Source: Meiothermus sp. Pnk-1 (GTDB taxonomy: Bacteria; Deinococcota; Deinococci; Deinococcales; Thermaceae). Taken from it: 64,000 bases of DNA. Shown here one piece after another: positions 27,981 to 41,684 of the stretch. The DNA lies in contig NZ_QKOB01000013.1 of the NCBI RefSeq assembly GCF_003226535.1, positions 23,337 to 87,336 of the forward strand, written 5' to 3'. A program made the translations under genes and the position numbers. The notes below the pieces were generated by a model. The model worked only from the letters and a program-made list of their open reading frames with translations. It did no database searches and was not told where the DNA came from. Positions within the stretch are counted from its first letter, which is position 1. Each line of letters starts with the position of its first letter.

Positions 27981-29042
27981 ATGAGTTTGCTGTTCGAGCC
28001 GCTCGAGCTTCGTTCGGTCACGCTGAAAAACCGCATCGCCATGTCCCCCATGTGCCAGTACTCCTGCGAAGAGCAAGACGGCCAGGTAAACGGCTGGCAC
28101 CTCCTCCACTACCCCACCCGAGCGGTGGGCGGGGTGGGGCTGATCATAGTGGAGGCCACCGCGGTGGAGGCGCGGGGGCGAATCAGCCCGGAGGACCTGG
28201 GCATCTGGTCGGACGCCCACCTCCCGGGGTTGCGGGAGCTGGCGGCCAAGATCAGGGCTCATGGGGCGGTGGCCGGGATCCAGCTCGCCCACGCCGGGCG
28301 CAAAGCCGGAACCACACGCCCCTGGGAGGGAGGAAAGCCCCTTTATGCCTGGACCCCGGTGGCCCCTAGCGCGCTGGCCTTTCAAGCGGGCTGGCCGGTT
28401 CCGGAGGAGTTGGACGAAGCGGGGCTCGAGGAGGTCAAAAACGCTTTCCAGCAGGCTGCAAGGCGGGCCTGGGAGGGCGGTTTCCAGGTGATTGAGCTGC
28501 ACATGGCCCACGGCTACTTGCTGCATTCCTTCCTCTCGCCCCTCTCCAACCACCGCACCGACCAGTACGGCGGGAGCCGGGAAAACCGTATGCGCTTCCC
28601 GCTCGAGGTGGTGGAGGCGGTGCGCGAAGTCTGGCCGGAGGAGCTTCCTCTTCTGGTGCGGGTCTCGGCGACCGACTGGGTGGAAGGCGGGTGGAGCGTC
28701 GAAGACACGGTGGCCTTGGCTCGAGAACTGGCGAAGCGCGGGGTAGACCTGCTCGACTGCTCCTCGGGTGGGATCGTTCCCGGGGTGAAGATCCCGCTGG
28801 GGCCGGGGTATCAGGTACCTTTTGCAGAGAAGGTCCGGCGCGAGGCCAGCCTCAAAACCGGAGCAGTGGGCCTCATCACCGACCCTCTGCAGGCCGAGGC
28901 CATTCTCCGCGAGGGACAGGCCGATGTGGTGTTTTTGGCTCGAGCCCTCCTGGCCGAACCCTACTGGGCCTACCGGGCCGCGCGGGCGCTGGGAGCCGAA
29001 AAGGTCTGGCCACGCCAGTACGACCGGGCCTTTCCCGGCTAG
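27981..29042 (+). CDS. Old yellow enzyme, NADPH dehydrogenase (NamA/YqjM-like)
   Basis: 353 residues from the ATG at 27981; a longer upstream frame overlaps pgm and is rejected. It is a thermophilic-like OYE with C25 in [10 protein letters not shown], the redox-tuning cysteine of the YqjM class, plus [50 protein letters not shown] and a late [12 protein letters not shown]. It is an FMN enzyme reducing activated C=C bonds, with a role in detoxification. Its stop overlaps the convergent permease gene by 4 bases. Confidence 0.93.
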
Positions 29043-29866
29043 CCCTTGGTGGCCCCGGCGGTGAGCCCCTTGATGAACTGCTCGGAGAGGAGCAAATACA
29101 AGAGGATCAGCGGCAACGCAGCCAGCGTAAGCCCAGCGAAGAGCGGCCCGTAGTCGGTGGCGAACTCTCCAAAGAAGACCGATAGGCCCTGGGGGACGGT
29201 CTTGAGGGCGGGATTTTGCAGAAAAGCCAGCGGCAGCAGGAAGTCGTTCCAGATGGGGATGGCGGTGTAGATGGCCACGATGGCGAGCTGAGGCCGTACC
29301 AAAGGCAGCATGATCCGCGCAAACACCTGCCACTCGCTAGCCCCGTCGATCCGCGCGGCGCTCTCGAGGTCGGCGGGGAGCGAGCGGAAAAAACCGGTGA
29401 GGATGAAGACCGCTGCCGGAACACCCCCCGCTGCGTAGACCAGGATGAGCCCCAGGTGCGAGTCCAGGAGGCCCATCTGCTTGAGTTGGACGAAAAGCGG
29501 CACCAGCACCAGCTTGGCCGGGAACAGCAGGCCTATCAGAAAGACCACGTACAGCAGGTTGTTGAGCCCGAAGCGAAAGCGCCCCAGGGCGTAAGCGGCC
29601 ATCGCGCTAAAGACCAGGATTAGAAGCTCGGCCCCCAGGGTGATGAAGACCGAGTTACGAAAGTACAGGTCGAAGCGGCCCGACTCCCAAACCTTGGCGA
29701 AGTTCTCCAGGCTCCATACCTTGGGCAAGGCAAAGGGCGAAGCGAAGATCTCCGCGGTAGGCTTTAGGGCCGAGATCAGCATCAGGGCCAACGGGAGGAT
29801 CACCCCCAAAGCATTCAGGCCAAGCGCCCCGAGCAATAGAGCATCGGCAAAGCTCAAACGGCGCAT
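29039..29866 (-). CDS. Sugar ABC transporter permease, MalG-like (CUT1), system 2
   Basis: 275 residues with six predicted membrane segments. The ATPase-contact EAA loop reads [25 protein letters not shown]. It is the inner-membrane partner of the next permease and of the binding protein at 30784-32046. The start overlaps the upstream permease stop by one base. No ATPase gene is in this cluster. Confidence 0.93.
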
Positions 29867-30765
29867 CAGCCCTCCACCTCCCGGCGGCGCAGGTAGAGCG
29901 AGCCTAGCGCCGACCCTGCCCCTACGATCACAAAGAGCACCACGCTGATGGCCGAGGCCACCCCCACATTGGAGGTGGCTTCAGAGGCTGCTCCGAAGGC
30001 CAGCCGATAAAACATCAAACCCAAGGTGTCGGTGGCCCCACCGGGGTTCCCGCTCACCCCAGCCATCACATAAGGCAACTCGAACCACTCCATGGCCCCG
30101 ATAAAGGTCAGGATCACGACGATGGTGAAAGCCGGAGCCAAGAGGGGGAGCATCACCTGGCGGAAGACCTGCCCCTCGGTGGCCCCATCGAGGCGGGCGG
30201 CCTCGTAGTACTCCTCGGGGATACTGTTCAATCCGGCCAAAAACACCAGGGTGGGAAAGCCCACCCAGCGCCAGGCGTTCACCAGAATTAAGGTCAAAAG
30301 GGCGTACTTGGGGTCCCCCAACGGGGCGAAGCTCGCCACCCCCAAGGCGTTGGCCATCTTGGTGATGGGACCGACCAGGGGGTCGAGAAAGAGAAGCCAC
30401 AAAAAGCCCACCACCACCAGCGAGAGAATCACCGGCAAAAACACCGTAACCCGGAAGAACCTAAATAGGGGCAGTTGCCGCCATAAGGCGTAAGCCAGCA
30501 GCAACCCCACCCCGTTCTGGATCACCATCAGCCCGACAAACGCCGAGAGGTTGTGGGAGAAAGCCCGGAGGAAGGCCTCGCGAAAGGGAAAGCTCAAGAG
30601 CTTGCGGAAGTTCTCGAGCCCCACAAACCCCTCGCGGTTGAAGCTGGTCCAGGAGTACAGGCTAAAGCTCAAGGCGTTGAGGGCCGGCCAGACCGTGAAG
30701 ACCAGCATCAGCAAAAGCGCCGGGGCCAGGAAGATGGTCAGCCATAAGTTCCGTTGAAAGCGCAT
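29866..30765 (-). CDS. Sugar ABC transporter permease, MalF-like (CUT1), system 2
   Basis: 299 residues with six predicted membrane segments and an EAA loop EYYEAARLDGATEGQVFRQVMLP. It forms a heterodimer with the following permease. It starts 18 bases after the binding-protein stop. Confidence 0.93.
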   Translation of the reverse strand: MRFQRNLWLTIFLAPALLLMLVFTVWPALNALSFSLYSWTSFNREGFVGLENFRKLLSFPFREAFLRAFSHNLSAFVGLMVIQNGVGLLLAYALWRQLPLFRFFRVTVFLPVILSLVVVGFLWLLFLDPLVGPITKMANALGVASFAPLGDPKYALLTLILVNAWRWVGFPTLVFLAGLNSIPEEYYEAARLDGATEGQVFRQVMLPLLAPAFTIVVILTFIGAMEWFELPYVMAGVSGNPGGATDTLGLMFYRLAFGAASEATSNVGVASAISVVLFVIVGAGSALGSLYLRRREVEG

Positions 30766-30783
30766 AGACCGGCTGGAGGTCGG

Positions 30784-32052
30784 CTACTTTTGGAATGGTT
30801 TGAACCACGTGGCCACGCCCTTGGTCATCTCCTCGGCGACCTGGCGGCCCGTGGCTTGGCCCAGGATCATCCTTTGCAGGCCGCTGCGAATGAGTTCGGT
30901 GCCGGTAGGGGTAGCGTAACGGAAGCCCACCAGGGTCAAGAAAGGGGTGCCGTAGTAGCCGGTCTGCTCGATGATCTCGGCCAGCACCGGGTCCTTGGCT
31001 TTGGTCCCCGGTATCGCCGAGGCCTGGGCTAGCCGCTCGGTAAACTGCTGGCCGAACTCCGGGGTGGAGAGGAAGTTGAGGAACTTGATGGCCGCCTCGG
31101 GGTACTTGGTCTTGGCGTTGATCGAGTAGTTCCCGTCGGCAAAGGTCGGGACGTAGGTGCGGCCCCCGCGGGTGAGGGGCGGGGCGGGCATAAAGCCAAA
31201 GTTGAGCTTGGGGTTGTTCTCGCGGAAGAAGGCGATGTCGAAGCCGCCGGTCACGAAGAAAGCGGCCCCGCCGTTGGTGAAGAGGGTACGGCCTTCGGGG
31301 TAACCGATGCCCGCGTAGTTGGGTGGGAAGAACTCCTTGAGCGCGGCGGTCTCCTCCAGGGCTTTGATAAAGCCTTCGTCCACAAAGGTTTTCTTTCCCG
31401 AGGTCACGTCGCGGAAGTAATCGGTGCCGCCATAGAACATGGGTCCGATCACCCCGAAGATCTGCTCGAGGCTGACCCCGTCTTTGGGACCGTTGGCCAG
31501 GGGAACGATCCCAGCGGCTTTGATCTTGGCCAGCGCAGCCTTGAACTCCGGCCAGGTCTCCGGCAACTCTTTGATCCCCGCCCGGCTCAGGAGGTCTTTG
31601 TTGTAGAAGAAGCCCAGGCTCTGGGTGGCGAAGGGCACCCCGTAGATCTTCTTGCGGGTGTCGTCCTTGAAACCACGGGCGGCGTTGAGGAGGCTCGAGG
31701 GAAACTTGCTCAGGTTGGGTACTTGCTTGGCGTCAATGGGCAGTAAGTAGCCCGCGTCCGCGAGTTGGGCCAACCCTCCGTAGGCTCGGGTGTGGATGAT
31801 GTCAGGGCCACTCCCCGCAGCCAGCGCCGAGGAAAGGATGGTGTTGTACTCGGTGTTTTTGTACGGGGTGAAGACTACCTTGATCCCGGTCTGCTTCTCG
31901 AACTGCTTGGCGATATCGTCGTAGAACTCCTTGTCTTCGACCCGCCAACTCCAGAAGCTGAGCGTGACCTGCTGGGCCAGGGTCGTCCCCGGGATTAGAA
32001 AAACCATCCCCACCGCTAATGCTTTGCTAAGTGTTCGTAAGGCCATTCGCAT
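30784..32052 (-). CDS. Sugar-binding protein of ABC transporter (CUT1), system 2
   Basis: 422 residues (ATG at 32052, second ATG at 32046). The signal peptide ends LIPGTTLAQQ, so it is cleaved by signal peptidase I or kept as a membrane anchor, with no lipobox. The mature part is a family-1 solute-binding protein: VTLSFWSWR, KQFEKQTGIKVVF, GSGPDIIHTRAYG, and GAAFFVTGGFD. The ligand is not readable. By context (NagA, NanE, kinase upstream on the same strand) an amino sugar or its oligomer is likely. It has its own promoter at 32089-32118. Confidence 0.92.
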   Translation of the reverse strand: MRMALRTLSKALAVGMVFLIPGTTLAQQVTLSFWSWRVEDKEFYDDIAKQFEKQTGIKVVFTPYKNTEYNTILSSALAAGSGPDIIHTRAYGGLAQLADAGYLLPIDAKQVPNLSKFPSSLLNAARGFKDDTRKKIYGVPFATQSLGFFYNKDLLSRAGIKELPETWPEFKAALAKIKAAGIVPLANGPKDGVSLEQIFGVIGPMFYGGTDYFRDVTSGKKTFVDEGFIKALEETAALKEFFPPNYAGIGYPEGRTLFTNGGAAFFVTGGFDIAFFRENNPKLNFGFMPAPPLTRGGRTYVPTFADGNYSINAKTKYPEAAIKFLNFLSTPEFGQQFTERLAQASAIPGTKAKDPVLAEIIEQTGYYGTPFLTLVGFRYATPTGTELIRSGLQRMILGQATGRQVAEEMTKGVATWFKPFQK

Positions 32053-32191: not shown

Positions 32192-33157
32192 TCAGGTATC
32201 GTAACCCAACGCGCCCTCGAGGCTGGCGATCTGACCCGGATGAATCGGTCCGGCCTGTTCCAGCGCCAGCACCAAGGCACCCCCTAAGGGCTCGAGCCGG
32301 GGAAGCCGCACCTCCGCCTTAGGGGCCAGCCGAGCAAGCGCTTGGATAAACGCCTCCCGCAGCACATCCACCCGGAAGACCCCCCCGGTGGGGTATACCG
32401 GCGGGTCCCAGAACTCCAGCTGGCGCATAACGGCCCCCGCCAGCCCCGCTAGCGCCGCTCCCCCTTCCCTCAGGATGTGCTGCGCCATCCTATCGCCCTC
32501 CCCCGCGACCCGGGCCACCACCGGCAACAGCCCCGCCACCCGCTGGCGCTCCAGACGACCATCGTAAAAGGCCAGGCGCAAATCCCAGGGCTGGCCCAGG
32601 CCGAGGTGGGCCAGCAGGGCCTGGGTCAGCCGGGTATCCGGGGCCAGCCGTTGGGAGGCCTCGAGCACCGCCCGCACCGCCTGCCGCCCTAGTTCATAAC
32701 CGCTTCCCGCGTCGCCCAAAAGGTAGCCATAGCCCCCTGCGAAGGCCTCCCGCCCCGCCCCATCTAGCCCCCAGGCGATCGAGCCGCCCCCGGCGATCAC
32801 CAACACCCCGGGGTTGCCGTAAGGGTCGGCCCCCCGGAAATTGCTCTGGGTGTCGTGGTGAATAGCCAGGCTCACCACACCGGGCAAGCGTTCCCGCATC
32901 CAGGACTCGACGGCGGAAGGGCCTCGCTGTGCCCCGGTCAGGCCCAAGGCGGCGTGGCGGATCGCCCCCAGCGGAAGCTGCGCGCCGATCTGCCGCAGCA
33001 GCTCCTCCAACACCCCCCGGCAGCGCTGGCGCTTTTCTTCGGTGGAGAGGTCATCCCAAGGCCCGGCCTGGGCTCGGGCCAACACCCGGCCCTGGAGGTC
33101 AGCCACCGCCGCCCGGGTGGAGGTCTGTCCCCCGTCGATTCCTAAAACAAACGTCAC
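32192..33157 (-). CDS. BadF/BadG/BcrA-type sugar kinase (N-acetylglucosamine kinase-like)
   Basis: 321 residues starting with GTG at 33157. It belongs to the ASKHA fold: phosphate-1 motif FVLGIDGGQTSTRAAVAD, a second motif around LGLTGAQRG, GVLVIAGGGSIAWG for the adenosine and phosphate-2 region, and GDAGSGYELGRQAV. The NagK-like members phosphorylate GlcNAc or glucosamine with ATP. The gene overlaps the nanE stop by 4 bases, so the two products probably act in sequence: phosphorylation of GlcNAc or ManNAc, then epimerisation. Confidence 0.85.
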   Translation of the reverse strand: MTFVLGIDGGQTSTRAAVADLQGRVLARAQAGPWDDLSTEEKRQRCRGVLEELLRQIGAQLPLGAIRHAALGLTGAQRGPSAVESWMRERLPGVVSLAIHHDTQSNFRGADPYGNPGVLVIAGGGSIAWGLDGAGREAFAGGYGYLLGDAGSGYELGRQAVRAVLEASQRLAPDTRLTQALLAHLGLGQPWDLRLAFYDGRLERQRVAGLLPVVARVAGEGDRMAQHILREGGAALAGLAGAVMRQLEFWDPPVYPTGGVFRVDVLREAFIQALARLAPKAEVRLPRLEPLGGALVLALEQAGPIHPGQIASLEGALGYDT

Positions 33158-33834
33158 GGCAACGCCTCTACAAAGCGGCGGGTGATCTCGGTGGGGTTGG
33201 TGATGGCCGTGCCGACCACCACCGCATACGCCCCGGCCTCGAGGGCGGCCCTGGCCTCCTGGGGGGTCCAGATGCGCCCTTCTGCCACCACCGGAACCGA
33301 GGTCTGCCGGGCGAGGAGGGCTACCAGCTCCAGATCTGGCCCTTGGCCTAGCCCTTGCGTGGCGGGGGTGTAACCCGAGAGGGTGCTCGCCAGCAGGTCG
33401 GCCCCGGCTTCGGCGGCCCACAACCCCTCCTCGAGCGTGGAGCAGTCGGCCATCACCGGCACCCCCAGCTCGGCTTGAATCTCCCGGATGAGGGCGTGCA
33501 GCTCAGGAAGGTTGAGCCGTTGGTAAAAAGCACAGGAAAGGGCCACCAAGTCGGCCCCGGCCTCCACGACCCGGCGGGCGGACTCCAGGTCCGGGGTGAT
33601 GATCACGTTCCCCTGCGGGTCCAGGCGTTTGTCAATTCCGATGATGGGGAGTTGGGTGACGGCCCGGATGGCCCGGATGTCCTCCGCCCCGTTAGCCCGT
33701 ATCCCCCCTGCCCCGCCCCTCTCGGCGGCCTTGGCCATCGCCGCCATAAAGCGGGGGCCGTACAGGGGGCTACCGGCCCTCGCCTGGCAGGAGACGATCA
33801 GCTTGTGCTGCAGTTTGGCTACCGTAGGGTGCAT
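33154..33834 (-). CDS. nanE: N-acetylmannosamine-6-phosphate 2-epimerase
   Basis: 226 residues, a TIM barrel: LIVSCQARAGSPLYGP, GGIRANGAEDIRAI, PIIGIDKR, VMADCSTLEEGLWAAEAGAD and the late PVVAEGRIWTPQEARAALEAGAYAVVVGTAITNP (in parts). It converts ManNAc-6-P to GlcNAc-6-P, feeding NagA. It sits 10 bases after the SIS gene and overlaps the kinase gene. Confidence 0.93.
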   Translation of the reverse strand: MHPTVAKLQHKLIVSCQARAGSPLYGPRFMAAMAKAAERGGAGGIRANGAEDIRAIRAVTQLPIIGIDKRLDPQGNVIITPDLESARRVVEAGADLVALSCAFYQRLNLPELHALIREIQAELGVPVMADCSTLEEGLWAAEAGADLLASTLSGYTPATQGLGQGPDLELVALLARQTSVPVVAEGRIWTPQEARAALEAGAYAVVVGTAITNPTEITRRFVEALP

Positions 33835-33844
33835 CGCGACCTCA

Positions 33845-34888
33845 TCAGCGTGTCCGGGTGACCTTCGAGAGGTTGCGGGGAGCGTCGGGGTTGTGGCCTC
33901 GGGCCACCGCCAGCCGGGCGGCGAAAGGGTAAAAAGCCTGAGCGATAAGCACCGAATCCAAGACCGGATGTAACCGGACGGACAGCGGCATGGGGGTGTG
34001 GGCGAACTCCAGGGCGTCCGCCTCGGAGGAAGCCACCAGCAGGTGGGCCCCCTTCCCGCGCAGGTTCTCCAACAGGCTTAGCATGCCAGGCAGGGGCTTG
34101 TCCTTGGGCAAAAGCGCCAGCAGCGGGAATCCCGGCTCTACCAGGGCCACCGGGCCGTGCAGGAGTTCGGCTCCCGAGAGGGCTTCGGCGTGGAGGGCGC
34201 TGGTCTCCTTGAGTTTGAGGGCTAGCTCGTTGGCTACTGCGAAAGCATAGCCTCGTCCGACCACCAGGGTGTTGTCGGTTTCGCTCAAGACCTCGAGCCC
34301 CGCGCTCCAGTCCGCCTCAGCAGCCTGGTATAGGGCCTCGGGGAGTTGGCTGAGCGCGCTTTGCAGCTCCCTATCGTCGCGCCAATACGCCACCAGTTGG
34401 GCCAAGGCGGCCAAGGCGGCCAGGTAGCTTTTGGTAGCGGCCACCGCCTCCTCGACTCCGGCCCACAGGGGCAGCACCACCTCGCACGAGCGAGCCAGCG
34501 GCGAGGATTCTTGGTTCACCAAGGCCACGGTAAGGGCTCCCCCGCGCCGGGCCTGGCGGGCTACCTCGATCAGGTCGGGGCTCTCTCCCGATTGCGACAC
34601 CGCCAACAGCAGGGCCTTATGGAGGCTCAGGTGGGCGCCGTAGACGGTGGTGGCAGAGGGGATGGCGCTCGAGCAGACCAGCCCCAACAGGCTTTCGATC
34701 AAGTACTTGCCGTAGAGGGCAGCGTGGTCGGAGCTACCCCGAGCCACGGTGAGAGCAAAGGGCGGGGGGTTACGGCGCAGGAAGCCAGCCAGGCTCTCCA
34801 CCTCGCTGCGGTTCTCGCGCAATAGACGCTCCACCACCGTGGGCGCTTGTAAGGCTTCGCGGTACATCTTGGTTTCGCTAACGTTCAT
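33845..34888 (-). CDS. Two-SIS-domain sugar phosphate isomerase/deaminase (NagB-II/GlmS C-terminal-like)
   Basis: 347 residues without the glutaminase half of GlmS. It begins with TKMYREALQAP and has two SIS domains: the first with VARGSSDHAALYGKY and LAVSQSGESPDLIEVARQAR, the second with VVGRGYAFAVANELALKLKETSALHAEALSGAELLHGPVAL (in parts). It is best explained as a glucosamine-6-phosphate deaminase of the NagB-II type, converting GlcN-6-P to fructose-6-P and ammonia after NagA. A classical nagB is not seen here, which fits replacement. Confidence 0.87.
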   Translation of the reverse strand: MNVSETKMYREALQAPTVVERLLRENRSEVESLAGFLRRNPPPFALTVARGSSDHAALYGKYLIESLLGLVCSSAIPSATTVYGAHLSLHKALLLAVSQSGESPDLIEVARQARRGGALTVALVNQESSPLARSCEVVLPLWAGVEEAVAATKSYLAALAALAQLVAYWRDDRELQSALSQLPEALYQAAEADWSAGLEVLSETDNTLVVGRGYAFAVANELALKLKETSALHAEALSGAELLHGPVALVEPGFPLLALLPKDKPLPGMLSLLENLRGKGAHLLVASSEADALEFAHTPMPLSVRLHPVLDSVLIAQAFYPFAARLAVARGHNPDAPRNLSKVTRTR

Positions 34889-34946: not shown

Positions 34947-36035
34947 TCAACGCACCCGCTCCCCGCGGATGTAGACCTCCTCGACCTCGAGCCCCGCGTT
35001 CAACACCACCAGGTCGGCCCGAGCCCCCACCGCGATGCGGCCCCGATCCTCGAGGCCCAGGTACTCGGCAGCCAGGGTAGAGACCCGCTGGGCCGCCTCT
35101 TCCAGGGGCAGGCCCCAACCCACCAGGTTGCGCAGGGCGCGGTCTAGGGTAAGAGAGCTCCCGGCCAAGGCGCCGTCGGCGAGGTAGACCCCCTCGCCCT
35201 TGCGGTAGACCGCGTGACGACCCATGCGATACTCCCCCTCGGGCATCCCGGCGGCGGCCACCGCGTCGGTGACCACGTACAGCCCCGGGATGGCCCGCAA
35301 CACGCCCCGCAGCACCGCCGGATGAACGTGCAATCCGTCGCCGATGACCTCGGCATAGCGAGCCCGCTCGAGGCTCAGCCCCACCACCCCCGGCTCACGC
35401 TGGACCAGCGGAGTCATGGCGTTGAAGAGGTGGGTAAAGCCCCTGGCCCCCGCCTCGAAAGCGGCCAGGGCTTCGGCGTAGGTGGCGGTGGTATGGCCCT
35501 GCTGCACCCGCACCCCCCGCCCTGCAAGCCAGCGGATGAGCTCGAGCGCCCCCGGCAGCTCAGCGGCCAGGGTGACGATGCGGATCGGGGCCAGTGCGCA
35601 AAAGCGCTGCACGAGCTCGAGGTCGGGCAGAAGCGGATAGGGTGGCTGGGCCCCTAGCTTCCGGGGGCTGATAAACGGGCCCTCCAGGTGTACTCCCACC
35701 ACCTGGGCCTCGTCCACAGCGGGCCTTTCGACCACCGCTCGAGCCCCTCGTAAAGCCGCCTCAATCTCCTCCACCGGGGCCGTGACGGTGGTGGCGAGCA
35801 GGGTGGTGGTGCCGTGCTGGGCGTGAAAACGGGCCAGTTGTCGAACGGCCGCCTCGCCTTCCATCGTGTCCGCTCCGCCGCCGCCGTGAACGTGTAGGTC
35901 AATGAACCCAGGCAAGATAAAGCGCCGGGGTTCCGGCGCGGTGGCCATGGGCTCGAGCCCCTCGACGCGCTCGCCGAAGCTGAGGCGTCCGGCCACAGGG
36001 CCCTGGGGGGTGATGACGGTTCCGGAAAGTTCCAT
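34947..36035 (-). CDS. nagA: N-acetylglucosamine-6-phosphate deacetylase
   Basis: 362 residues from the ATG at 36035, which has a perfect AGGAGG site. It is an amidohydrolase barrel: LPGFIDLHVHGGGGADTME with H48 and H50, HLEGPFISP for the metal-binding glutamate, QQGHTTATYAEALAAFEAGARGFTHLFNAM (in parts) for the later histidines, and VVTDAVAAAGMPEG with the catalytic aspartate. It releases acetate from GlcNAc-6-P. It follows DUF4127 by 14 bases. Confidence 0.95.
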   Translation of the reverse strand: MELSGTVITPQGPVAGRLSFGERVEGLEPMATAPEPRRFILPGFIDLHVHGGGGADTMEGEAAVRQLARFHAQHGTTTLLATTVTAPVEEIEAALRGARAVVERPAVDEAQVVGVHLEGPFISPRKLGAQPPYPLLPDLELVQRFCALAPIRIVTLAAELPGALELIRWLAGRGVRVQQGHTTATYAEALAAFEAGARGFTHLFNAMTPLVQREPGVVGLSLERARYAEVIGDGLHVHPAVLRGVLRAIPGLYVVTDAVAAAGMPEGEYRMGRHAVYRKGEGVYLADGALAGSSLTLDRALRNLVGWGLPLEEAAQRVSTLAAEYLGLEDRGRIAVGARADLVVLNAGLEVEEVYIRGERVR

Positions 36036-36049
36036 TAGACCTCCTGCAT

Positions 36050-37570
36050 TTAGATTACGCGCCCCTCCCGCACCAGGCGCAGGGGGAACACCCCGGTGAA
36101 CAAGCGGGGCCAGGCTAGCCTGGCTGGCCCGCGCTCGAGCCGCACCCCCGGCAGCCGTGGGGCGAAGTGCCACGCCCACAGCTCCTCGACCAGGGGGGCC
36201 ATGCGGGCCTCGACCAGGGCCTCGGCGCGGGGCTTGAGCTCGCCCAAGTCGAAGGGGCTGGGGTCACCGAGCGCTTCGCGCACCTCGCCGCGTACCCGGC
36301 CTTGGTAGAGCCAGTCATCGACGAGCCGCGAGAGGTGAGCCTCGGCCAGGGCCAGGGGGTCGCTCCCGTAGAGGGAGCAAACCCCAGAGGCGATGGCGCT
36401 GCCCAGCGTGTTCCCCGCCGTGTTCCAGGCGGCGTACCCGGCCAGGCGGGTCACGTCCACGGCATCCAGCAGCAGCCGGGTGAAGCGCTCCTCGGCCCCG
36501 TTGGCATAGGCCACGTCGGCCACGGTGACCCGGCGGCCTGCGGCCAGGTCTTCGGCGATGCACCCCACGAACTCGGGCAGGTGGCGGTTGGCGGTGTCCA
36601 CCGCCTCGAGGTTGGGCTGGCGGTGGGCCTGCCGGTGGGAAGGGGCGTTGACGGCCAGGATCAGGTCGGCGGCCTCGGGGCTCGAGGCCGCCACGCAGCC
36701 CGCCGCCCGCAGGTGGGCCTTGACCAACTCGCCCAGCACGCGGTCCTCGTAGAGCATCACGCTGTGAGGGGCCAGGGCCGAGGGGTAGCGCACCCAGATG
36801 CGGGGCTTGCGGCCCGAGGCGTTGACCAGAGCCCGCGCCAGCAGCACCGCCGCCACCTCGTCGGCGCCGGGGTACACGTCGGCCTTCGGCCACAGGTTCA
36901 GCTCGTCGATCCGGGCTTCCAAACGCCGCCGATCCCTGGCCGCTAGACCATACGGAGTGGTGTCGTCCAGGGTCAGGCACAGGTGCTCGAGCACCCCCTC
37001 CTGCAGCAGGCCGATGGCCGCCTGGTGCAGGGCGTGGTTGCGCTCGCGGGTGGCGAGCCAGTCCTCCAGAATCTCCCTTGGGACTGCGGAAATCGCGGCC
37101 TCGAGTTCCGAGCGATCCGCGCCCCGCTCCACCCGGTCGGTCCACTCCGACACCCGGCGCAGCGCCGCACCCCACCGGCCGTAGTAGGGCTTCTCCTCCA
37201 GCGGATCGTCGTCGTGGGCCACCCGCACGATCACGCCGTAGGCCAGCAGGCGCAGCCGGGGGTGGTCCCGCTTCACCTCGCGCAGCACCTCCAGCCGCCC
37301 CAGCGCCGCCTCGAGCGGGTCCGAGACCCGGCGGGCCGGGATCATGCCGCCCAGGGTGAGGGTCTCGAGGGTGACGAGGGCCACGTCGGCGGCAGGGGCG
37401 TGCTCGCGCAGCCATTCGGCGATCCCGGCGGTGTCGCCAGGGCGGTTTAGGTGGTTGAGGATCTCCAGGGGGGGCGAGAGCAGCTCGAGGCCGGCCACCC
37501 GCGCGAGCTGGTGGGGCAGCTCGAGGGTGGGGGGGCGGGTGTCACAGGGCAGGAGCAGTACGCGCTTCAT
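36050..37570 (-). CDS. DUF4127 family protein
   Basis: 506 residues, soluble, without a signal peptide. The start MKRVLLLPCDTRPPTLELPHQL, then TLETLTLGGMIPARRV, LTLDDTTPYGLAARDRRRLEA, YPGADEVAAVLLARAL and YAAWNTAGNTLGSAIASG match the DUF4127 family as I remember it. Conserved Asp/Glu/Asn-rich patches (LDDTTPYG, NTAGNT) look like catalytic or metal sites, but no function is established. The gene abuts the permease stop with no gap and precedes nagA by 14 bases, so it belongs to the amino-sugar operon and probably processes the imported sugar before deacetylation. This role is inference. Confidence 0.8.
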   Translation of the reverse strand: MKRVLLLPCDTRPPTLELPHQLARVAGLELLSPPLEILNHLNRPGDTAGIAEWLREHAPAADVALVTLETLTLGGMIPARRVSDPLEAALGRLEVLREVKRDHPRLRLLAYGVIVRVAHDDDPLEEKPYYGRWGAALRRVSEWTDRVERGADRSELEAAISAVPREILEDWLATRERNHALHQAAIGLLQEGVLEHLCLTLDDTTPYGLAARDRRRLEARIDELNLWPKADVYPGADEVAAVLLARALVNASGRKPRIWVRYPSALAPHSVMLYEDRVLGELVKAHLRAAGCVAASSPEAADLILAVNAPSHRQAHRQPNLEAVDTANRHLPEFVGCIAEDLAAGRRVTVADVAYANGAEERFTRLLLDAVDVTRLAGYAAWNTAGNTLGSAIASGVCSLYGSDPLALAEAHLSRLVDDWLYQGRVRGEVREALGDPSPFDLGELKPRAEALVEARMAPLVEELWAWHFAPRLPGVRLERGPARLAWPRLFTGVFPLRLVREGRVI

Positions 37571-38479
37571 CTACCCCTTTACCGCCCCCTCGAGCCCGCG
37601 CATAAAAAGCCGCTGGGCCAGGAGGAAGACCAGCAGCACCGGGATCATCATCAGCACAGCCCCTGCCGCTACGTTGAAGGTGTCGTAGTTGAACTGTCCC
37701 TTGAGCTTGAGGATCGCCACCGACAGCGGCAACAACTCCTCGTTGGTGAGCAAGGCTACCGAGGGCCAAAAATAAGCGTTCCAGGTACTGACCAGGGTAA
37801 AGATGCCCAAAGCGGTGAGCGAGGGCCTCGAGAGCGGAATCATGATCCGCCATAGGATCTGCGTCTCGCTGGCCCCGTCAATCCGGGCGGCCTCCAGAAG
37901 GGTACCGGGGATGGCTAGGTAGGCCTGGCGCATGAGAAAGATGCCGAAGGCGGTTGCCACCGTGGGCAGCACCACCCCCCAGTAGGTGCCCAGCAGGTGC
38001 AGCTTGTTGAGGGTCAACACGTTGACGATAAACGAGGTCTCGGTGGGCAAGACCAAGGTGGAGAGGATCGCAGCGAAGATGAGGTTCTTCCCGGGAAAGC
38101 GCAGCCGGGCCAGCGGATAAGCGGCCAGGGCCGAGACGATCAGGGTTCCCGCCACGGTGAGCCCGGTGATGATCAGCGAGTTTAGCAAATACTTGCCCAG
38201 CTTGAGCTTTTCGAAGACCTCGACGAAGTTGCCCAGGGTGACGGCGGGCGGGAAGAGGCTACGGGGAAGGTCGTAGATGCTGATCCCGGCTGCTTTTTTG
38301 TCGGTGAGGGAGATCGCCAGGGTCCACAGGAAAGGGAAAACCGCAAAGGCCAGGATGGCCAGCAGGATCAGGTAGGTCAAAGCGAAGCCCACCCCTTTGC
38401 GCCACGCCGCCCGGCGGCGCAGCCCCGCGGCCTCTGCTCGGGCGTGGAGGGTGGTCGGGAAGCCTCCTCGTTCGTTCAT
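37571..38479 (-). CDS. Sugar ABC transporter permease, MalG-like (CUT1), system 1
   Basis: 302 residues with six predicted membrane segments and the EAA loop [26 protein letters not shown]. The cytoplasmic N terminus is longer than usual and basic. It overlaps the MalF-like gene by 4 bases and directly abuts DUF4127. Confidence 0.94.
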   Translation of the reverse strand: MNERGGFPTTLHARAEAAGLRRRAAWRKGVGFALTYLILLAILAFAVFPFLWTLAISLTDKKAAGISIYDLPRSLFPPAVTLGNFVEVFEKLKLGKYLLNSLIITGLTVAGTLIVSALAAYPLARLRFPGKNLIFAAILSTLVLPTETSFIVNVLTLNKLHLLGTYWGVVLPTVATAFGIFLMRQAYLAIPGTLLEAARIDGASETQILWRIMIPLSRPSLTALGIFTLVSTWNAYFWPSVALLTNEELLPLSVAILKLKGQFNYDTFNVAAGAVLMMIPVLLVFLLAQRLFMRGLEGAVKG

Positions 38480-39384
38480 CGCTCTCCTCGATCCTCGCGG
38501 GTGATGCGAAAGTTAAGGTAGCTGAGCCCGAAGCCTACCAATGCGATGAGCAGCCCCGCCGCGCTGGCCACCCCGTAGTTGAAGTCCAGCCCCAGGCTCT
38601 TGTTGTAGACGTAGAGCAAGGCGGTGTAGGTGCTGTTGAGCGGGCCGCCGGTGCCCCCGGTAAAGACCAGAATCTCCTCGAGCACCCGGATCGCTGCGAT
38701 GGTCGAGAGCAGGCTGCACAAGAGGAGGGTGGGGCGCATCAGCGGGACGGTGATCCGCCAAAAACGCTGCCAAGGGCTGGCCCCGTCGAGGGTGGCGGCC
38801 TCCTCGAGCTCGCCGGGGATGGCCTGCAGCCCGGCCAAATAGAGCACCATGTAGTAGCCAAAGCCGCGCCAGAAGGTCACCAGCATGATCGCCCAAAGGG
38901 CCGTGTGCTCGTTCAAGAGCCAGTTGAACTGCCCACCCTGGTTGAAAAAGCCAACTAGCCGCAGCGACCAGTTGAGCAAGCCGTCCTTCTGGAAAACCCA
39001 CTCCCACATCACCGCCGCCAGCGAGATCGAGGTAATGACCGGGATGTAGTAGCCCGCGCGGAACAAGGCTATGAAGGGCAGCTTTCGGTTCACCAACACC
39101 GCCACCGCCAAGGAAGCGATCTGCAAAACCGGCACCACCAGCAAGTATTTGAGCGAGTTCACAATCCCGGTCTGAAACAGCGGGTCGCGCAAGACCAGGG
39201 CGAAGTTCTGCCCGCCCACCCAACGGGGCGGCGCCCCCGAGCCCAGGTTGGCGGCGGTGTACTCGGTGAACCCCAGGTAAGCTCCGTAGAGTACCGGATA
39301 AAAGGTGAATAGCCCCATCAGCACCAACGCCGGGGCTAGGAAAGCGTAGGCTGCGAGGGTGGTTGTCCAGGCTTGGCGTTTCAT
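38476..39384 (-). CDS. Sugar ABC transporter permease, MalF-like (CUT1), system 1
   Basis: 302 residues with six predicted membrane segments and the EAA loop LEEAATLDGASPWQRFWRITVPLMRP. It is the partner of the MalG-like permease. It is separated from the binding-protein gene by a 56-base gap holding a strong stem-loop. Confidence 0.94.
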   Translation of the reverse strand: MKRQAWTTTLAAYAFLAPALVLMGLFTFYPVLYGAYLGFTEYTAANLGSGAPPRWVGGQNFALVLRDPLFQTGIVNSLKYLLVVPVLQIASLAVAVLVNRKLPFIALFRAGYYIPVITSISLAAVMWEWVFQKDGLLNWSLRLVGFFNQGGQFNWLLNEHTALWAIMLVTFWRGFGYYMVLYLAGLQAIPGELEEAATLDGASPWQRFWRITVPLMRPTLLLCSLLSTIAAIRVLEEILVFTGGTGGPLNSTYTALLYVYNKSLGLDFNYGVASAAGLLIALVGFGLSYLNFRITREDRGER

Positions 39385-39440: not shown

Positions 39441-40685
39441 TCACTTGGCGTTGGCGTTCCAGAAGGCCACCGCGTCGTCGAGGGCCTGCTTGGCGCTTTT
39501 CTTACCCAAGAAGGCGGCCTCGATGTTGTCGTTGAAGTTTTTGTAGACGTCGTCGGTGTTCTTGGGGGGTTTGAAGCCCGGGTTGATCAGGCGGCCAGAG
39601 CTCGAGTTCATCCCCTTGCCGATCTCGAGGGGGTCGTCGCTCTTGGCCTTGAGGCCGGGGTCGCTCTCGCAGCCCTTGGCGGTGCAGACGATGGGTACCA
39701 CGTTGGCGAACTTGACCTGGTTGGCGCGGTTGGTCATGAACAGGGCAAAGCGGGCCGCCGCGGCTTGGTTCTTGGAAGCCTTGGGGATTACCAGATCCAT
39801 CGCCCCGCCGGTCTGGATCCCGGCCTTACCCAAAGGAGCACTGGCGATCTTGGTCTTTTTGTAGAGGTCGGGGTTGGCCTCCTTGACCCGGTTCAGCGAG
39901 GTCGGAGCCCCCACGATGATGGCAGCCTTACCTTGGCTGTAGAGCTCGTTGGAAAGCTGGAAGGCTTCCTTGCGCAAGAGCTCCTGGGGGATCACGTCGT
40001 TCTTCATGGCGTCGACGTACTTTTGCAAGAGGGCCACGTGCGCCGGGGAGTTGAAGTTGGCCTTGCCGTCCTTGTCGTAGATGGAGAGGCCCTCGAGGAA
40101 AAAGCGGCCCAAGAAGCTCGCACCGTTGGGGTCCTTGACCGGGGGCAACCAGCCGTAGGCCCCGGTGGCCTTCTTGATCCTCTCGGAGGCGGCGAGCAGG
40201 TCGTCGGTGTTCCTTATGCCCTTGACGTCCACCCCGGCCTTGGCAAAGAGATCGGGGTTGTACATCATCACCCCCTGGTCGAGCCAGCCGTACCAGGGCA
40301 GGCCGTAGACCTGGCCGTCCACGGTGAAAATGTCCAACACGTTGGGATAGTAGAGCTGGTTGAGCAAGCCGCGCGAGACCACCTGGGTGATGGGAAGCAG
40401 GATGCCGTTCTGGGCGGCGGCGAAGGTGGAGTCTTGCCACAGGTTGACCACGTCGGGGGCCTTGCCGAGCGCAATGGAGGCGGTGAGGTCGCGCTCCATG
40501 GTGTCCTGCTTGTCCACCCACTTGACCTTGATGGTGGGGTTGGCCCGCTCGAACTCGGCGATAGTGCTTTTGATGTAGTTGTCGAAGTTGGGGCTCAGGT
40601 AGTAGGTCCAGAACTCGATCTGGGTCTGAGCAAAAGCGCTCAATCCCAGCGCCATCGCTCCTGCTGCCAGCAACCGCTTAACCAT
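39441..40685 (-). CDS. Sugar-binding protein of ABC transporter (CUT1), system 1
   Basis: 414 residues. The signal peptide is MVKRLLAAGAMALGLSAFAQ with a likely cut after AFA. The mature part is a family-1 binding protein: IEFWTYYLSPNFDNYIKS, FERANPTIKVKWVDKQ, GKAPDVVNLW and a later GKAAIIVGAPTS. Residues with cysteines near VPIVCTAKGCESDPG are unusual for this family and could form one disulfide outside the membrane. It is first after the RpiR gene on the same strand. The ligand is probably a GlcNAc- or MurNAc-type sugar by context. Confidence 0.93.
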   Translation of the reverse strand: MVKRLLAAGAMALGLSAFAQTQIEFWTYYLSPNFDNYIKSTIAEFERANPTIKVKWVDKQDTMERDLTASIALGKAPDVVNLWQDSTFAAAQNGILLPITQVVSRGLLNQLYYPNVLDIFTVDGQVYGLPWYGWLDQGVMMYNPDLFAKAGVDVKGIRNTDDLLAASERIKKATGAYGWLPPVKDPNGASFLGRFFLEGLSIYDKDGKANFNSPAHVALLQKYVDAMKNDVIPQELLRKEAFQLSNELYSQGKAAIIVGAPTSLNRVKEANPDLYKKTKIASAPLGKAGIQTGGAMDLVIPKASKNQAAAARFALFMTNRANQVKFANVVPIVCTAKGCESDPGLKAKSDDPLEIGKGMNSSSGRLINPGFKPPKNTDDVYKNFNDNIEAAFLGKKSAKQALDDAVAFWNANAK

Positions 40686-40757: not shown

Positions 40758-41624
40758 TCAGTAACTCCGATCCGCCACCGCCGCCGCGGTTTTGCTCAGC
40801 AGTTCTGCGCCTTTGGGGTGACGCAGGGCGGTGCGGGTAAAGAGAAAATCGAGGATCATCAGCTGGCTGATCTTGGCGCTCATCGAGCCGCGCGTAAGGG
40901 GGGACTCCGGCGCCGAGGTAAGCAGTACCGCATCGGCGAAGCGGGTAATGGGGCTACGGGCCCCACGGGTCACCGCTACGGTATAGGCCCCCGCCAGCTT
41001 AGCCTGCTTGAGCGCTTTCACGGTGTCGATGGAGGAGCCCGAGACCGAGATGCCAAAGGCCAAGTCTTTCGGCCCCAACGTGGCGGCTGAAACCGCCGCC
41101 GAGTGGGGATCAGGGTAGGCGATGGCCGCACAGCCCAGCCGCTGGAGCTTTTGGGCAAAGTCCTGGGCCGTGGTTCCTGCGTTCCCTACGCCGTAAAAGT
41201 CGATGCGGCGGGCTTTCAGAATGCGCTCTACCACCGCCTCGAGCAGATCCACATCCATCAAGCGGCGGGTCTCGTCGAGAACCTGCCGGGCAGTGTTGTA
41301 GACGTAGTCGGCAGTGCTCTGGGCCGAGGTGGGTTTTTCCTGTTTGGGCAAGATCACCGGGCTCGTCACCAAGTCGCTCGCCAGCGCTAGCTTGAAATCC
41401 TGGAAGCCCCGAAACCCCAAGTCGCGGCAAAAGCGCACCACGCTGGCCTCGCTCGCGCCCGCTGCGTCGGCGACTTCGATCACGGTTTGGTAAATGACCT
41501 GGTCGGCGTTATGCAACACGTACTGGGCGATGCGCTCGAGGGCCGGGGTCATCGACCCGGTGAGGCTCCTGAGGCTCATCAGAGCCCCGCCGGGCATAGG
41601 GTCTCGCTGCTTAGAACGACTCAC
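40758..41624 (-). CDS. RpiR-family transcriptional regulator (MurR-like)
   Basis: 288 residues starting with GTG at 41624 behind GGAG. The N-terminal HTH_6 domain reads MTPALERIAQYVLHNADQVI, then IEVADAAGASEASVVRFCRDLGFRGFQDFK (in parts), and the C-terminal SIS domain has DFYGVGNAGTTAQDFAQKLQRLG and FGISVSGSSIDTVKALKQAK. RpiR proteins sense phosphosugars. It lies at the head of the amino-sugar train and is divergent from nagZ, so it probably controls both. Confidence 0.9.
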   Translation of the reverse strand: MSRSKQRDPMPGGALMSLRSLTGSMTPALERIAQYVLHNADQVIYQTVIEVADAAGASEASVVRFCRDLGFRGFQDFKLALASDLVTSPVILPKQEKPTSAQSTADYVYNTARQVLDETRRLMDVDLLEAVVERILKARRIDFYGVGNAGTTAQDFAQKLQRLGCAAIAYPDPHSAAVSAATLGPKDLAFGISVSGSSIDTVKALKQAKLAGAYTVAVTRGARSPITRFADAVLLTSAPESPLTRGSMSAKISQLMILDFLFTRTALRHPKGAELLSKTAAAVADRSY

Positions 41625-41654: not shown

Positions 41655-41684
41655 AGGCTAGAGGATGAAGTAAATTTTTGTCAA
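41655..41684 (-). promoter_or_regulatory. Promoter of the RpiR gene and amino-sugar train
   Basis: TTGACA (41679-41684), 18 bases, TAGCCT (41655-41660) on the minus strand, in the 71-base gap between the RpiR and nagZ starts. The start point would lie within a few bases of 41648. Confidence 0.6.

What the first reader, a model, noticed from the sequence alone, without database searches (positions are those of the whole stretch)
36050..37570. DUF4127 protein embedded between sugar permease and nagA
The gene abuts the MalG-like stop with no gap and is 14 bases before nagA with its own AGGAGG site, so its product should act on the imported compound or on its regulation. It is soluble and has conserved LDDTTPYG and AAWNTAGNT patches. 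No activity is known to me for the family; it could be a hydrolase, lyase or phosphorylase for the incoming glycan.
Basis: partly seen in the sequence, partly recalled or inferred. Interest (0 to 1): 0.75.

Follow-up and report, generated by a model that had tools for sequence, protein, structure and literature searches.

The report
Likely ManNAc-glycan-cutting enzyme, unknown family DUF4127
A gene of a protein family with no known function lies in a sugar-uptake gene run and, in many unrelated bacteria, is again found close to the gene for the epimerase that handles N-acetylmannosamine-6-phosphate, so it is predicted to cut a small N-acetylmannosamine-containing sugar, likely from bacterial cell envelopes, a job for which our literature search found no described enzyme.

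Summary
In detail: window 36050-37570 (minus strand) is one intact 506-aa DUF4127 gene, starting at the stop of a sugar-ABC permease and ending 14 bases before nagA, in the run rpiR-SBP-permease-permease-DUF4127-nagA-nagB-nanE-nagK. The survey changes the reading. Outside Deinococcota the partner is not NagA but NanE (ManNAc-6-P 2-epimerase), found in 56 of 80 named loci; where both occur the nearest NanE is on the same strand (69 of 69 loci, all sets). The window regulator is closest to a NanR solved with ManNAc-6-P. Yet the sialic-acid lyase NanA is over its cut-off in 1 of 36 genomes and not in this one. PTS loci carry no ROK kinase (0 of 24); ABC loci usually do (32 of 40). In the smallest PTS operons (NanE-HAD-DUF4127-IIC-RpiR) DUF4127 is the one candidate for splitting an imported disaccharide. 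A second form with a signal peptide lies near SLH, LCP or TagA genes in some loci. Best reading: a glycosidase-like enzyme releasing ManNAc or ManNAc-6-P from a ManNAc disaccharide, perhaps ManNAc-beta-1,4-GlcNAc of cell-wall polymers. Activity is untested; the model has no whole-fold PDB match; no library paper names DUF4127 or PF13552.

The parts
36050..37570 (-). DUF4127 (PF13552) protein, 506 aa, no signal peptide; predicted ManNAc-glycoside-splitting enzyme
34947..36035 (-). nagA, GlcNAc-6-P deacetylase (TIGR00221 over its cut-off); start 14 bases after the DUF4127 stop
33845..34888 (-). SIS-domain protein, NagB-II-like GlcN-6-P deaminase (best NCBIfam match NF046059, below its cut-off)
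33154..33834 (-). NanE, ManNAc-6-P 2-epimerase (PF04131; NF002231 over cut-off; closest solved chains 4UTT/4UTW)
32192..33184 (-). BadF-type sugar kinase, NagK-like (below the NCBIfam cut-off); start codon uncertain
37571..38479 (-). sugar ABC permease (UgpE/MalG type); its stop abuts the DUF4127 start
38476..39384 (-). sugar ABC permease (UgpA/MalF type)
39441..40685 (-). sugar ABC solute-binding protein
40758..41624 (-). RpiR-family regulator; closest solved chain 4IVN (Vibrio NanR, described as a ManNAc-6-P complex in PMC12713135)
41678..43219 (+). divergent GH3 beta-N-acetylhexosaminidase (NF003740 over cut-off)
37535..37549 (-). codons of P8-x-D10-x-R12, first strictly conserved active-site-like motif
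   Evidence: coordinates from the reading frame

Best explanation
The window gene encodes a DUF4127 protein without signal peptide, in one gene run with a sugar-ABC transporter and a ManNAc-6-phosphate epimerase gene, and is predicted to split a ManNAc-containing disaccharide that the transporter would take up, so that the freed ManNAc would be phosphorylated and turned into GlcNAc-6-phosphate. Shown: gene order, co-occurrence with NanE, no NanA match in this genome, intact conserved core. Inferred: (1) the transporter brings in a ManNAc-glycoside, likely ManNAc-beta-1,4-GlcNAc or a larger envelope fragment that GH3 (and GH38 in relatives) trims; (2) DUF4127 hydrolyses the bond in the cleft between its two Rossmann-like halves, using conserved acids (D10, D202, D203, D237, E238, D352); (3) the NagK-like or ROK kinase makes ManNAc-6-P in ABC operons, while in PTS operons the PTS phosphorylates the non-reducing sugar and DUF4127 releases ManNAc-6-P directly; (4) NanE makes GlcNAc-6-P, NagA and NagB-II feed it to glycolysis; (5) the NanR-like RpiR senses ManNAc-6-P. 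The secreted form of the family is proposed to act on the same kind of bond in the envelope.
For: NanE in 56 of 80 named loci, about 0.7 expected from NanE density, in 30 of 45 genus-level groups (labels typed from record titles); nearest NanE on the same strand in 69 of 69 loci holding both, within 300 nt in 32 of 69. NanE somewhere in 34 of 35 of those genomes tested. In 111 Deinococcota genomes the long DUF4127 form and NanE coincide: both 26, long only 5, NanE only 7, neither 73. NanA over its cut-off in 1 of 36 genomes, there beside another NanE copy; no match in the window genome. PTS/kinase complementarity: PTS loci ROK 0 of 24, HAD 22 of 24; ABC loci ROK 32 of 40, HAD 0 of 40. Smallest operons NanE-HAD-DUF4127-IIC-RpiR; the two IIC proteins tested pass the lactose/cellobiose-family model TIGR00410. 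The two RpiR proteins tested, of the window and of L110, are closest to 4IVN. Core residues kept in both the cytoplasmic and the secreted form. Three genomes without NanE (G029, G032, G036) hold full-length DUF4127 frames that lost D10, R12, D203, D237, N383 and T384 (E238 in one of the three). Secreted form: SLH is the commonest family among the 93 neighbours scanned (7 of 93); L153 has SLH, LCP and WecG/TagA genes beside it. Beta-ManNAc-(1,4)-GlcNAc repeats in SLH-binding wall polymers are described in PMC6801904 (passages).
Against: No activity, ligand or solved structure. The structure prediction is confident (pLDDT 95.6) but matches no known glycosidase: Foldseek found nothing at E <= 0.001 for the whole protein and the first half resembles common Rossmann-like folds. 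GH38 alpha-mannosidase (21 of 80 loci; 5 of 18 Deinococcota) and ManA (6 of 80) point to mannose in the substrate, which ManNAc-GlcNAc alone does not explain; nor is the FAD oxidoreductase (34 of 80) or the Cof-HAD explained. NanE lies in the stretch read in only 7 of 18 Deinococcota loci, and 24 of 80 named loci lack it; a cytoplasmic subgroup (L053, L156, L169-L173, L182) has none. G034 has intact DUF4127 and no NanE. The named loci were chosen by similarity to one NanE-linked protein; in the independent Bacillota sample NanE is in 6 of 15 cytoplasmic-form loci. The CsaB association (47 of 47 against 203 of 252) has a high background and no correction for kinship. Most neighbours of the secreted form are not evident envelope genes.
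Confidence: 0.45

Rival explanations
1. DUF4127 splits a mannosyl-HexNAc core such as Man-beta-1,4-GlcNAc left after alpha-mannosidase trimming of N-glycan-like material; NanE would serve a side stream.
For: GH38 alpha-mannosidase in 21 of 80 named loci and 5 of 18 Deinococcota loci, ManA in 6 of 80; a lactose/cellobiose-type PTS fits a beta-disaccharide.
Against: Leaves the NanE link (56 of 80) and the NanR-like regulator without a role; GH38 is in 1 (L092) of the 25 PTS loci listed, within 7 kb.
Confidence: 0.2
2. DUF4127 is an isomerase, epimerase or lyase that makes ManNAc or ManNAc-6-P from another imported amino sugar, not a glycosidase.
For: Two Rossmann-like halves and no similarity to a known glycosidase; fits the NanE link equally well.
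Against: In PTS operons of the lactose/cellobiose type it would leave no enzyme to split the disaccharide; no invariant His, Ser or Cys in 80 sequences, though S264 and H286 are near-invariant there and an acidic metal site is possible.
Confidence: 0.15
3. DUF4127 processes peptidoglycan sugars (GlcNAc-MurNAc or anhydro form), the run being a cell-wall recycling operon.
For: Divergent GH3 NagZ-type enzyme, NagA, NagB-II, NagK-like kinase in the run.
Against: The MurQ-like gene lies on another contig (G000:C8, 278.5 bits, below the cut-off of 302); NanE is not a step of MurNAc use (recalled); the regulator is closer to NanR (E 1e-38) than to MurR (4e-15).
Confidence: 0.08
4. The run is a sialic-acid pathway and DUF4127 replaces NanA or handles a sialic-acid derivative.
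For: NanE, NanR-like RpiR, ROK kinase and esterases resemble nan gene sets.
Against: Does not explain lactose/cellobiose-type PTS, GH38, GH3, or the secreted form; NanA over cut-off in 1 of 36 genomes and beside another NanE copy (17 more genomes have weaker matches, below the cut-off). A non-homologous NanA cannot be excluded by sequence.
Confidence: 0.06

Closest known systems
nan operons (NanA-NanK-NanE with an RpiR NanR; recalled, regulator part from PMC12713135)
   Same: NanE, RpiR closest to NanR, kinase, ABC transporter; ManNAc-6-P as shared intermediate (inferred here)
   Different: No NanA match in the window genome, over cut-off in 1 of 36 genomes tested; DUF4127 in its place; disaccharide-type PTS in many relatives
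6-phospho-disaccharide PTS operons such as MurP-MupG or chitobiose operons (recalled)
   Same: Disaccharide-type PTS uptake plus a cytoplasmic enzyme splitting the phosphorylated disaccharide
   Different: The splitting enzyme would be DUF4127, for which Pfam and PDB sequence searches show no other family
NamZ / DUF1343 (GH171), a former DUF that became a glycosidase family (recalled)
   Same: An orphan family found through its nag/mur gene neighbours
   Different: Not compared here by profile; the Pfam scan of the window protein lists PF13552 alone
SGNH hydrolases
   Different: Tied with binding proteins and receivers; no invariant Ser or His; Asp (D10) follows the first strand

Membership tests
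PF13552 DUF4127 | Full-length profile match over the curated cut-off | tested here: met
   514.7 bits against 27; positions 1-485 of 489
PF13552 DUF4127 | Strictly conserved core residues present | tested here: met
   P8 D10 R12 G74 R80 R116 D202 D203 G235 D237 E238 D352 N357 W382 T384 N387 G390 all in the window protein
NanE-linked cytoplasmic DUF4127 subgroup (defined here) | No signal peptide and NanE on the same strand in the same run | tested here: met
Glycoside hydrolase (as activity) | Hydrolysis of a glycosidic bond | not testable with these tools
   Needs an assay
A glycoside hydrolase family already in Pfam | Sequence match to such a family | tested here: not met
   Only PF13552 at E up to 1; no NCBIfam match at E up to 0.1
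A protein family with a solved structure | Sequence match to a PDB chain | tested here: not met
   None at E up to 10 for one sequence; for the 80-sequence profile only 37 positions of virginiamycin B lyase at E 0.13-0.15
Known whole fold | Structural match over the whole chain | tested here: inconclusive
SGNH hydrolase | Fold of the first half | tested here: inconclusive
SGNH hydrolase | Catalytic Ser after strand 1 and invariant catalytic His (recalled features) | tested here: not met
   D10 in that place; no invariant Ser or His in 80 sequences; the near-invariant S264 and H286 lie beyond the first half
Sialic-acid (nan) catabolic operon | NanA lyase | tested here: not met
   No match in the window genome at E <= 1e-40; 1 of 36 genomes over cut-off
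MurNAc-6-P (MurQ) recycling operon | MurQ in the run | tested here: not met
   MurQ-like gene on contig C8, below cut-off

The most novel reading that the evidence does not exclude
DUF4127 is a new glycosidase family with a fold of its own, the first enzymes assigned to breaking ManNAc linkages of bacterial wall polymers: a cytoplasmic form (unphosphorylated or 6-phospho substrate) feeds scavenged ManNAc-GlcNAc into GlcNAc metabolism through NanE without sialic acid, and a secreted form remodels the ManNAc-bearing polymers that hold SLH proteins and S-layers.
Probability: 0.25. Interest if true: 0.82.

Novelty: new variant of a known kind. Interest (0 to 1): 0.62.

Why it matters
The family occurs in Deinococcota and, by record titles, in Bacillota, Actinomycetota (Collinsella, Gardnerella), cyanobacteria, spirochaetes (Treponema) and gammaproteobacteria (Vibrio, Pantoea); no paper in the library holds DUF4127 or PF13552. 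If the reading is right it fills the missing enzyme of a ManNAc route that does not start from sialic acid, explains NanE genes in genomes without NanA, and gives a tool for cutting ManNAc-bearing wall polymers; the library holds no paper with the words mannosaminidase, N-acetylmannosaminidase or ManNAcase. The version of this genome, close to Meiothermus and Calidithermus proteins, is likely thermostable.

Tried and rejected
Fold search as a route to function: the whole model and a model of residues 1-254 gave only Rossmann-like matches, tied with unrelated families; the second half was not folded alone. The viral library gave one strong structural relative without a name, A0A346TNQ6; the phage collection gave two short unannotated matches. 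NagA as the key partner was dropped after the survey. A link of the secreted form to wall polymers was tested with neighbours and with CsaB: suggestive only; in Deinococcota CsaB is in 107 of 111 genomes and tells nothing. The tree has an unresolved root; secreted and cytoplasmic forms are each in more than one group. Literature searches on ManNAc disaccharides, wall polymers and NanE gave no description of this family in the listings seen.

Rows dropped or set by hand; 13 rows left out (11 without the motif in the searched range or weak pieces, 2 duplicates); L004, the window genome's own short paralog, is one of them, although one search shows motif and signal sequence; the secreted class is a hydrophobicity rule over 2.0, with L063, L144 and L089 set to cytoplasmic by hand because the stretch lies before the likely start; L175 (no motif found) counted as cytoplasmic; L144 is the same gene as L063; loci were taken for 45 of 47 genomes (not G111, already L062, and not G375, a 19-bit match); for G172 not the best copy. 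The long form was tallied by hand as matches over 200 bits. CsaB counts use E <= 1e-20 matches read off the list. The 18 Deinococcota loci were chosen by hand, with about 7-10 kb on each side and some cut by contig ends. NanE density uses 49 full-length matches counted and the rounded genome sizes.

Full report
What is there. Window 36050-37570 on the minus strand is a 506-aa ORF that matches PF13552 DUF4127 over nearly the whole model at 3e-154 and nothing else in Pfam or NCBIfam. Its start touches the stop of the upstream permease and its stop lies 14 bases, with AGGAGG, before nagA. The run reads RpiR, solute-binding protein, two permeases, DUF4127, NagA, NagB-II-like SIS protein, NanE, NagK-like kinase, with a GH3 hexosaminidase divergent at 41678. 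No paper in the library holds DUF4127 or PF13552, and no PDB sequence matches it.

The same run elsewhere in the phylum. A genome of the same genus (L034) has the same order with one more gene, an FAD_oxidored PF12831 protein, between the permease and DUF4127. Other genomes of the family carry a GH38 alpha-mannosidase between DUF4127 and nagA. In the 18 Deinococcota loci read, NagA and NagB-II are each in 10, GH3 in 9, RpiR in 8, NanE in 7 and GH38 in 5. At the level of whole genomes, PF13552 is found in 66 of 111 Deinococcota and NanE in 33. Counting only the long form (over 200 bits, 31 genomes), both are present in 26, the long form alone in 5, NanE alone in 7 and neither in 73 (Fisher p 3e-14, no correction for kinship). 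Three of the five exceptions, G029, G032 and G036, have full-length frames in which D10, R12, D203, D237, N383 and T384 are gone while D352 remains; G034 is intact and a true exception; G090 is a partial match. The three are in one genus and may be a single event.

Other phyla. A scan of one genome for each of 84,980 species with an alignment of Bacillota and Deinococcota members kept the best 80 of 439 confirmed places. Profiles made from these loci found NanE in 56 of 80, RpiR in 53, an ABC component in 40, ROK in 38, FAD oxidoreductase in 34, a PTS IIC in 24, HAD in 23, GH38 in 21, AXE1 esterase in 14, ManA in 6 and GH3 in 2. From the density of NanE in 35 of these genomes (49 full-length matches in about 128 Mb) 0.7 loci would be expected by chance. 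By genus-level groups, 30 of 45 have at least one NanE locus. The nearest NanE is on the same strand as DUF4127 in all 69 loci of the three sets that hold both. Because the 80 are the best matches to one NanE-linked Priestia protein, an independent sample was taken: 299 genomes of the phylum of L062, 47 with a match, 45 loci read. Of these, 30 encode a form with a signal-peptide-like start and none has NanE; of the 15 others 6 have NanE and 13 an ABC component. So the NanE link belongs to part of the cytoplasmic form, not to the whole family.

Kinase or PTS. Loci with PTS IIC have HAD in 22 of 24 and ROK in 0 of 24; loci with ABC and no PTS have ROK in 32 of 40 and HAD in 0 of 40. The IIC proteins of L110 and L091, the two tested, pass the lactose/cellobiose-family model TIGR00410. 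The smallest operons are NanE-HAD-DUF4127-IIC-RpiR. Inference: this transporter family brings in phosphorylated disaccharides (recalled), NanE needs ManNAc-6-P, and DUF4127 is the one candidate left for the split. In ABC operons the kinase would supply the phosphate. The role of HAD is not explained. In the tree, PTS- and ABC-linked members are mixed within one Bacillota group, so DUF4127 and NanE stay together while the transporter changes.

Regulator and epimerase. The window RpiR is closest to 4IVN (E 1.1e-38), ahead of 8JU9 (1e-33) and MurR chains (4e-15); the L110 regulator likewise (8.7e-31 against 1.5e-24). PMC12713135 (passages read) describes 4IVN as Vibrio NanR with ManNAc-6-P and shows ManNAc-6-P as effector of pneumococcal NanR. 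The window NanE aligns with 4UTT, and the Lys that is Ala in 4UTU is Lys here (that 4UTU is a catalytic mutant is recalled). NanA has no match in the window genome and is over its cut-off in 1 of 36 genomes, next to another NanE copy; 17 more genomes have weaker matches below the cut-off. So the ManNAc-6-P is unlikely to come from sialic acid by the classical lyase.

Two compartments. The signal-peptide form includes the short Thermaceae paralog; the window genome has one on contig C24, with a clear signal sequence before YLPLDDRPP. Both forms keep D10, R12, G74, R80, R116, D203, G235, D237, E238, D352, N357, W382, T384, N387 and G390; E125, Y129, E275, D276 and R277 are conserved in the cytoplasmic form and variable in the secreted one. 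None of the invariant residues of 80 sequences is Ser, His or Cys; S264 and H286 are near-invariant there. Among the 93 neighbours of the secreted form that were scanned SLH is the commonest Pfam family (7 of 93), followed by MurA-type and other genes that need not be linked. In L153 the gene lies with an SLH protein, an LCP ligase and a WecG/TagA glycosyltransferase. CsaB matches are in 47 of 47 DUF4127 genomes against 203 of 252 others, a weak hint. The window genome has CsaB and three SLH matches. [quoted passage not shown] This is the basis for naming ManNAc-beta-1,4-GlcNAc as the likely substrate; it is inference.

Judgement. The gene is real and its tie to sugar uptake and to NanE is strong. 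That it is an enzyme on the imported sugar is likely; that it is a ManNAc-glycosidase is the best single reading at about 0.45; the exact disaccharide is less sure. The alpha-mannosidase and the FAD oxidoreductase in many loci keep a mannosyl-HexNAc substrate alive as the main rival.

Noticed in passing
L107:9197-11527 (Listeria riparia contig): HAD phosphatase and DUF4127 are read as one 776-aa frame; the nanE beside it is split over two frames, so fusion or assembly error cannot be told apart.
   Followed up: partly
L153:7970-12959: Secreted DUF4127 beside an SLH protein, an LCP ligase and a WecG/TagA glycosyltransferase.
   Followed up: partly
L187-L189 (G036, G029, G032): Full-length DUF4127 frames in which several conserved core residues are lost, in genomes without NanE.
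   Followed up: yes
window 29039-32052: Two permease-like genes (similar to the nag-run permeases) and a gene that looks like a solute-binding protein lie just downstream of the nag run on the same strand: probably a second sugar-ABC set.
   Followed up: no
L004:7500-8999: Short secreted DUF4127 paralog of the window genome; short forms are also in the genomes of the unnamed genus g4, where NanE was not found.
   Followed up: partly
L034:5839-7221 and many loci: FAD_oxidored PF12831 of unknown role is a frequent partner of DUF4127 across phyla; absent from the window run.
   Followed up: no
L060 (Subdoligranulum plasmid): DUF4127 in an ABC cluster with an AAC(3)-like protein and a PfkB kinase and no NanE: possibly another substrate.
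   Followed up: no
BFVD A0A346TNQ6: A 693-aa protein of the viral structure library is a structural relative of DUF4127 (TMq 0.80, 22% identity), unnamed.
   Followed up: no
PMC3283741 (passages): A pneumococcal island joins a cellobiose-type PTS with a NanE-like protein and a sulfatase; no DUF4127 was looked for there.
   Followed up: no
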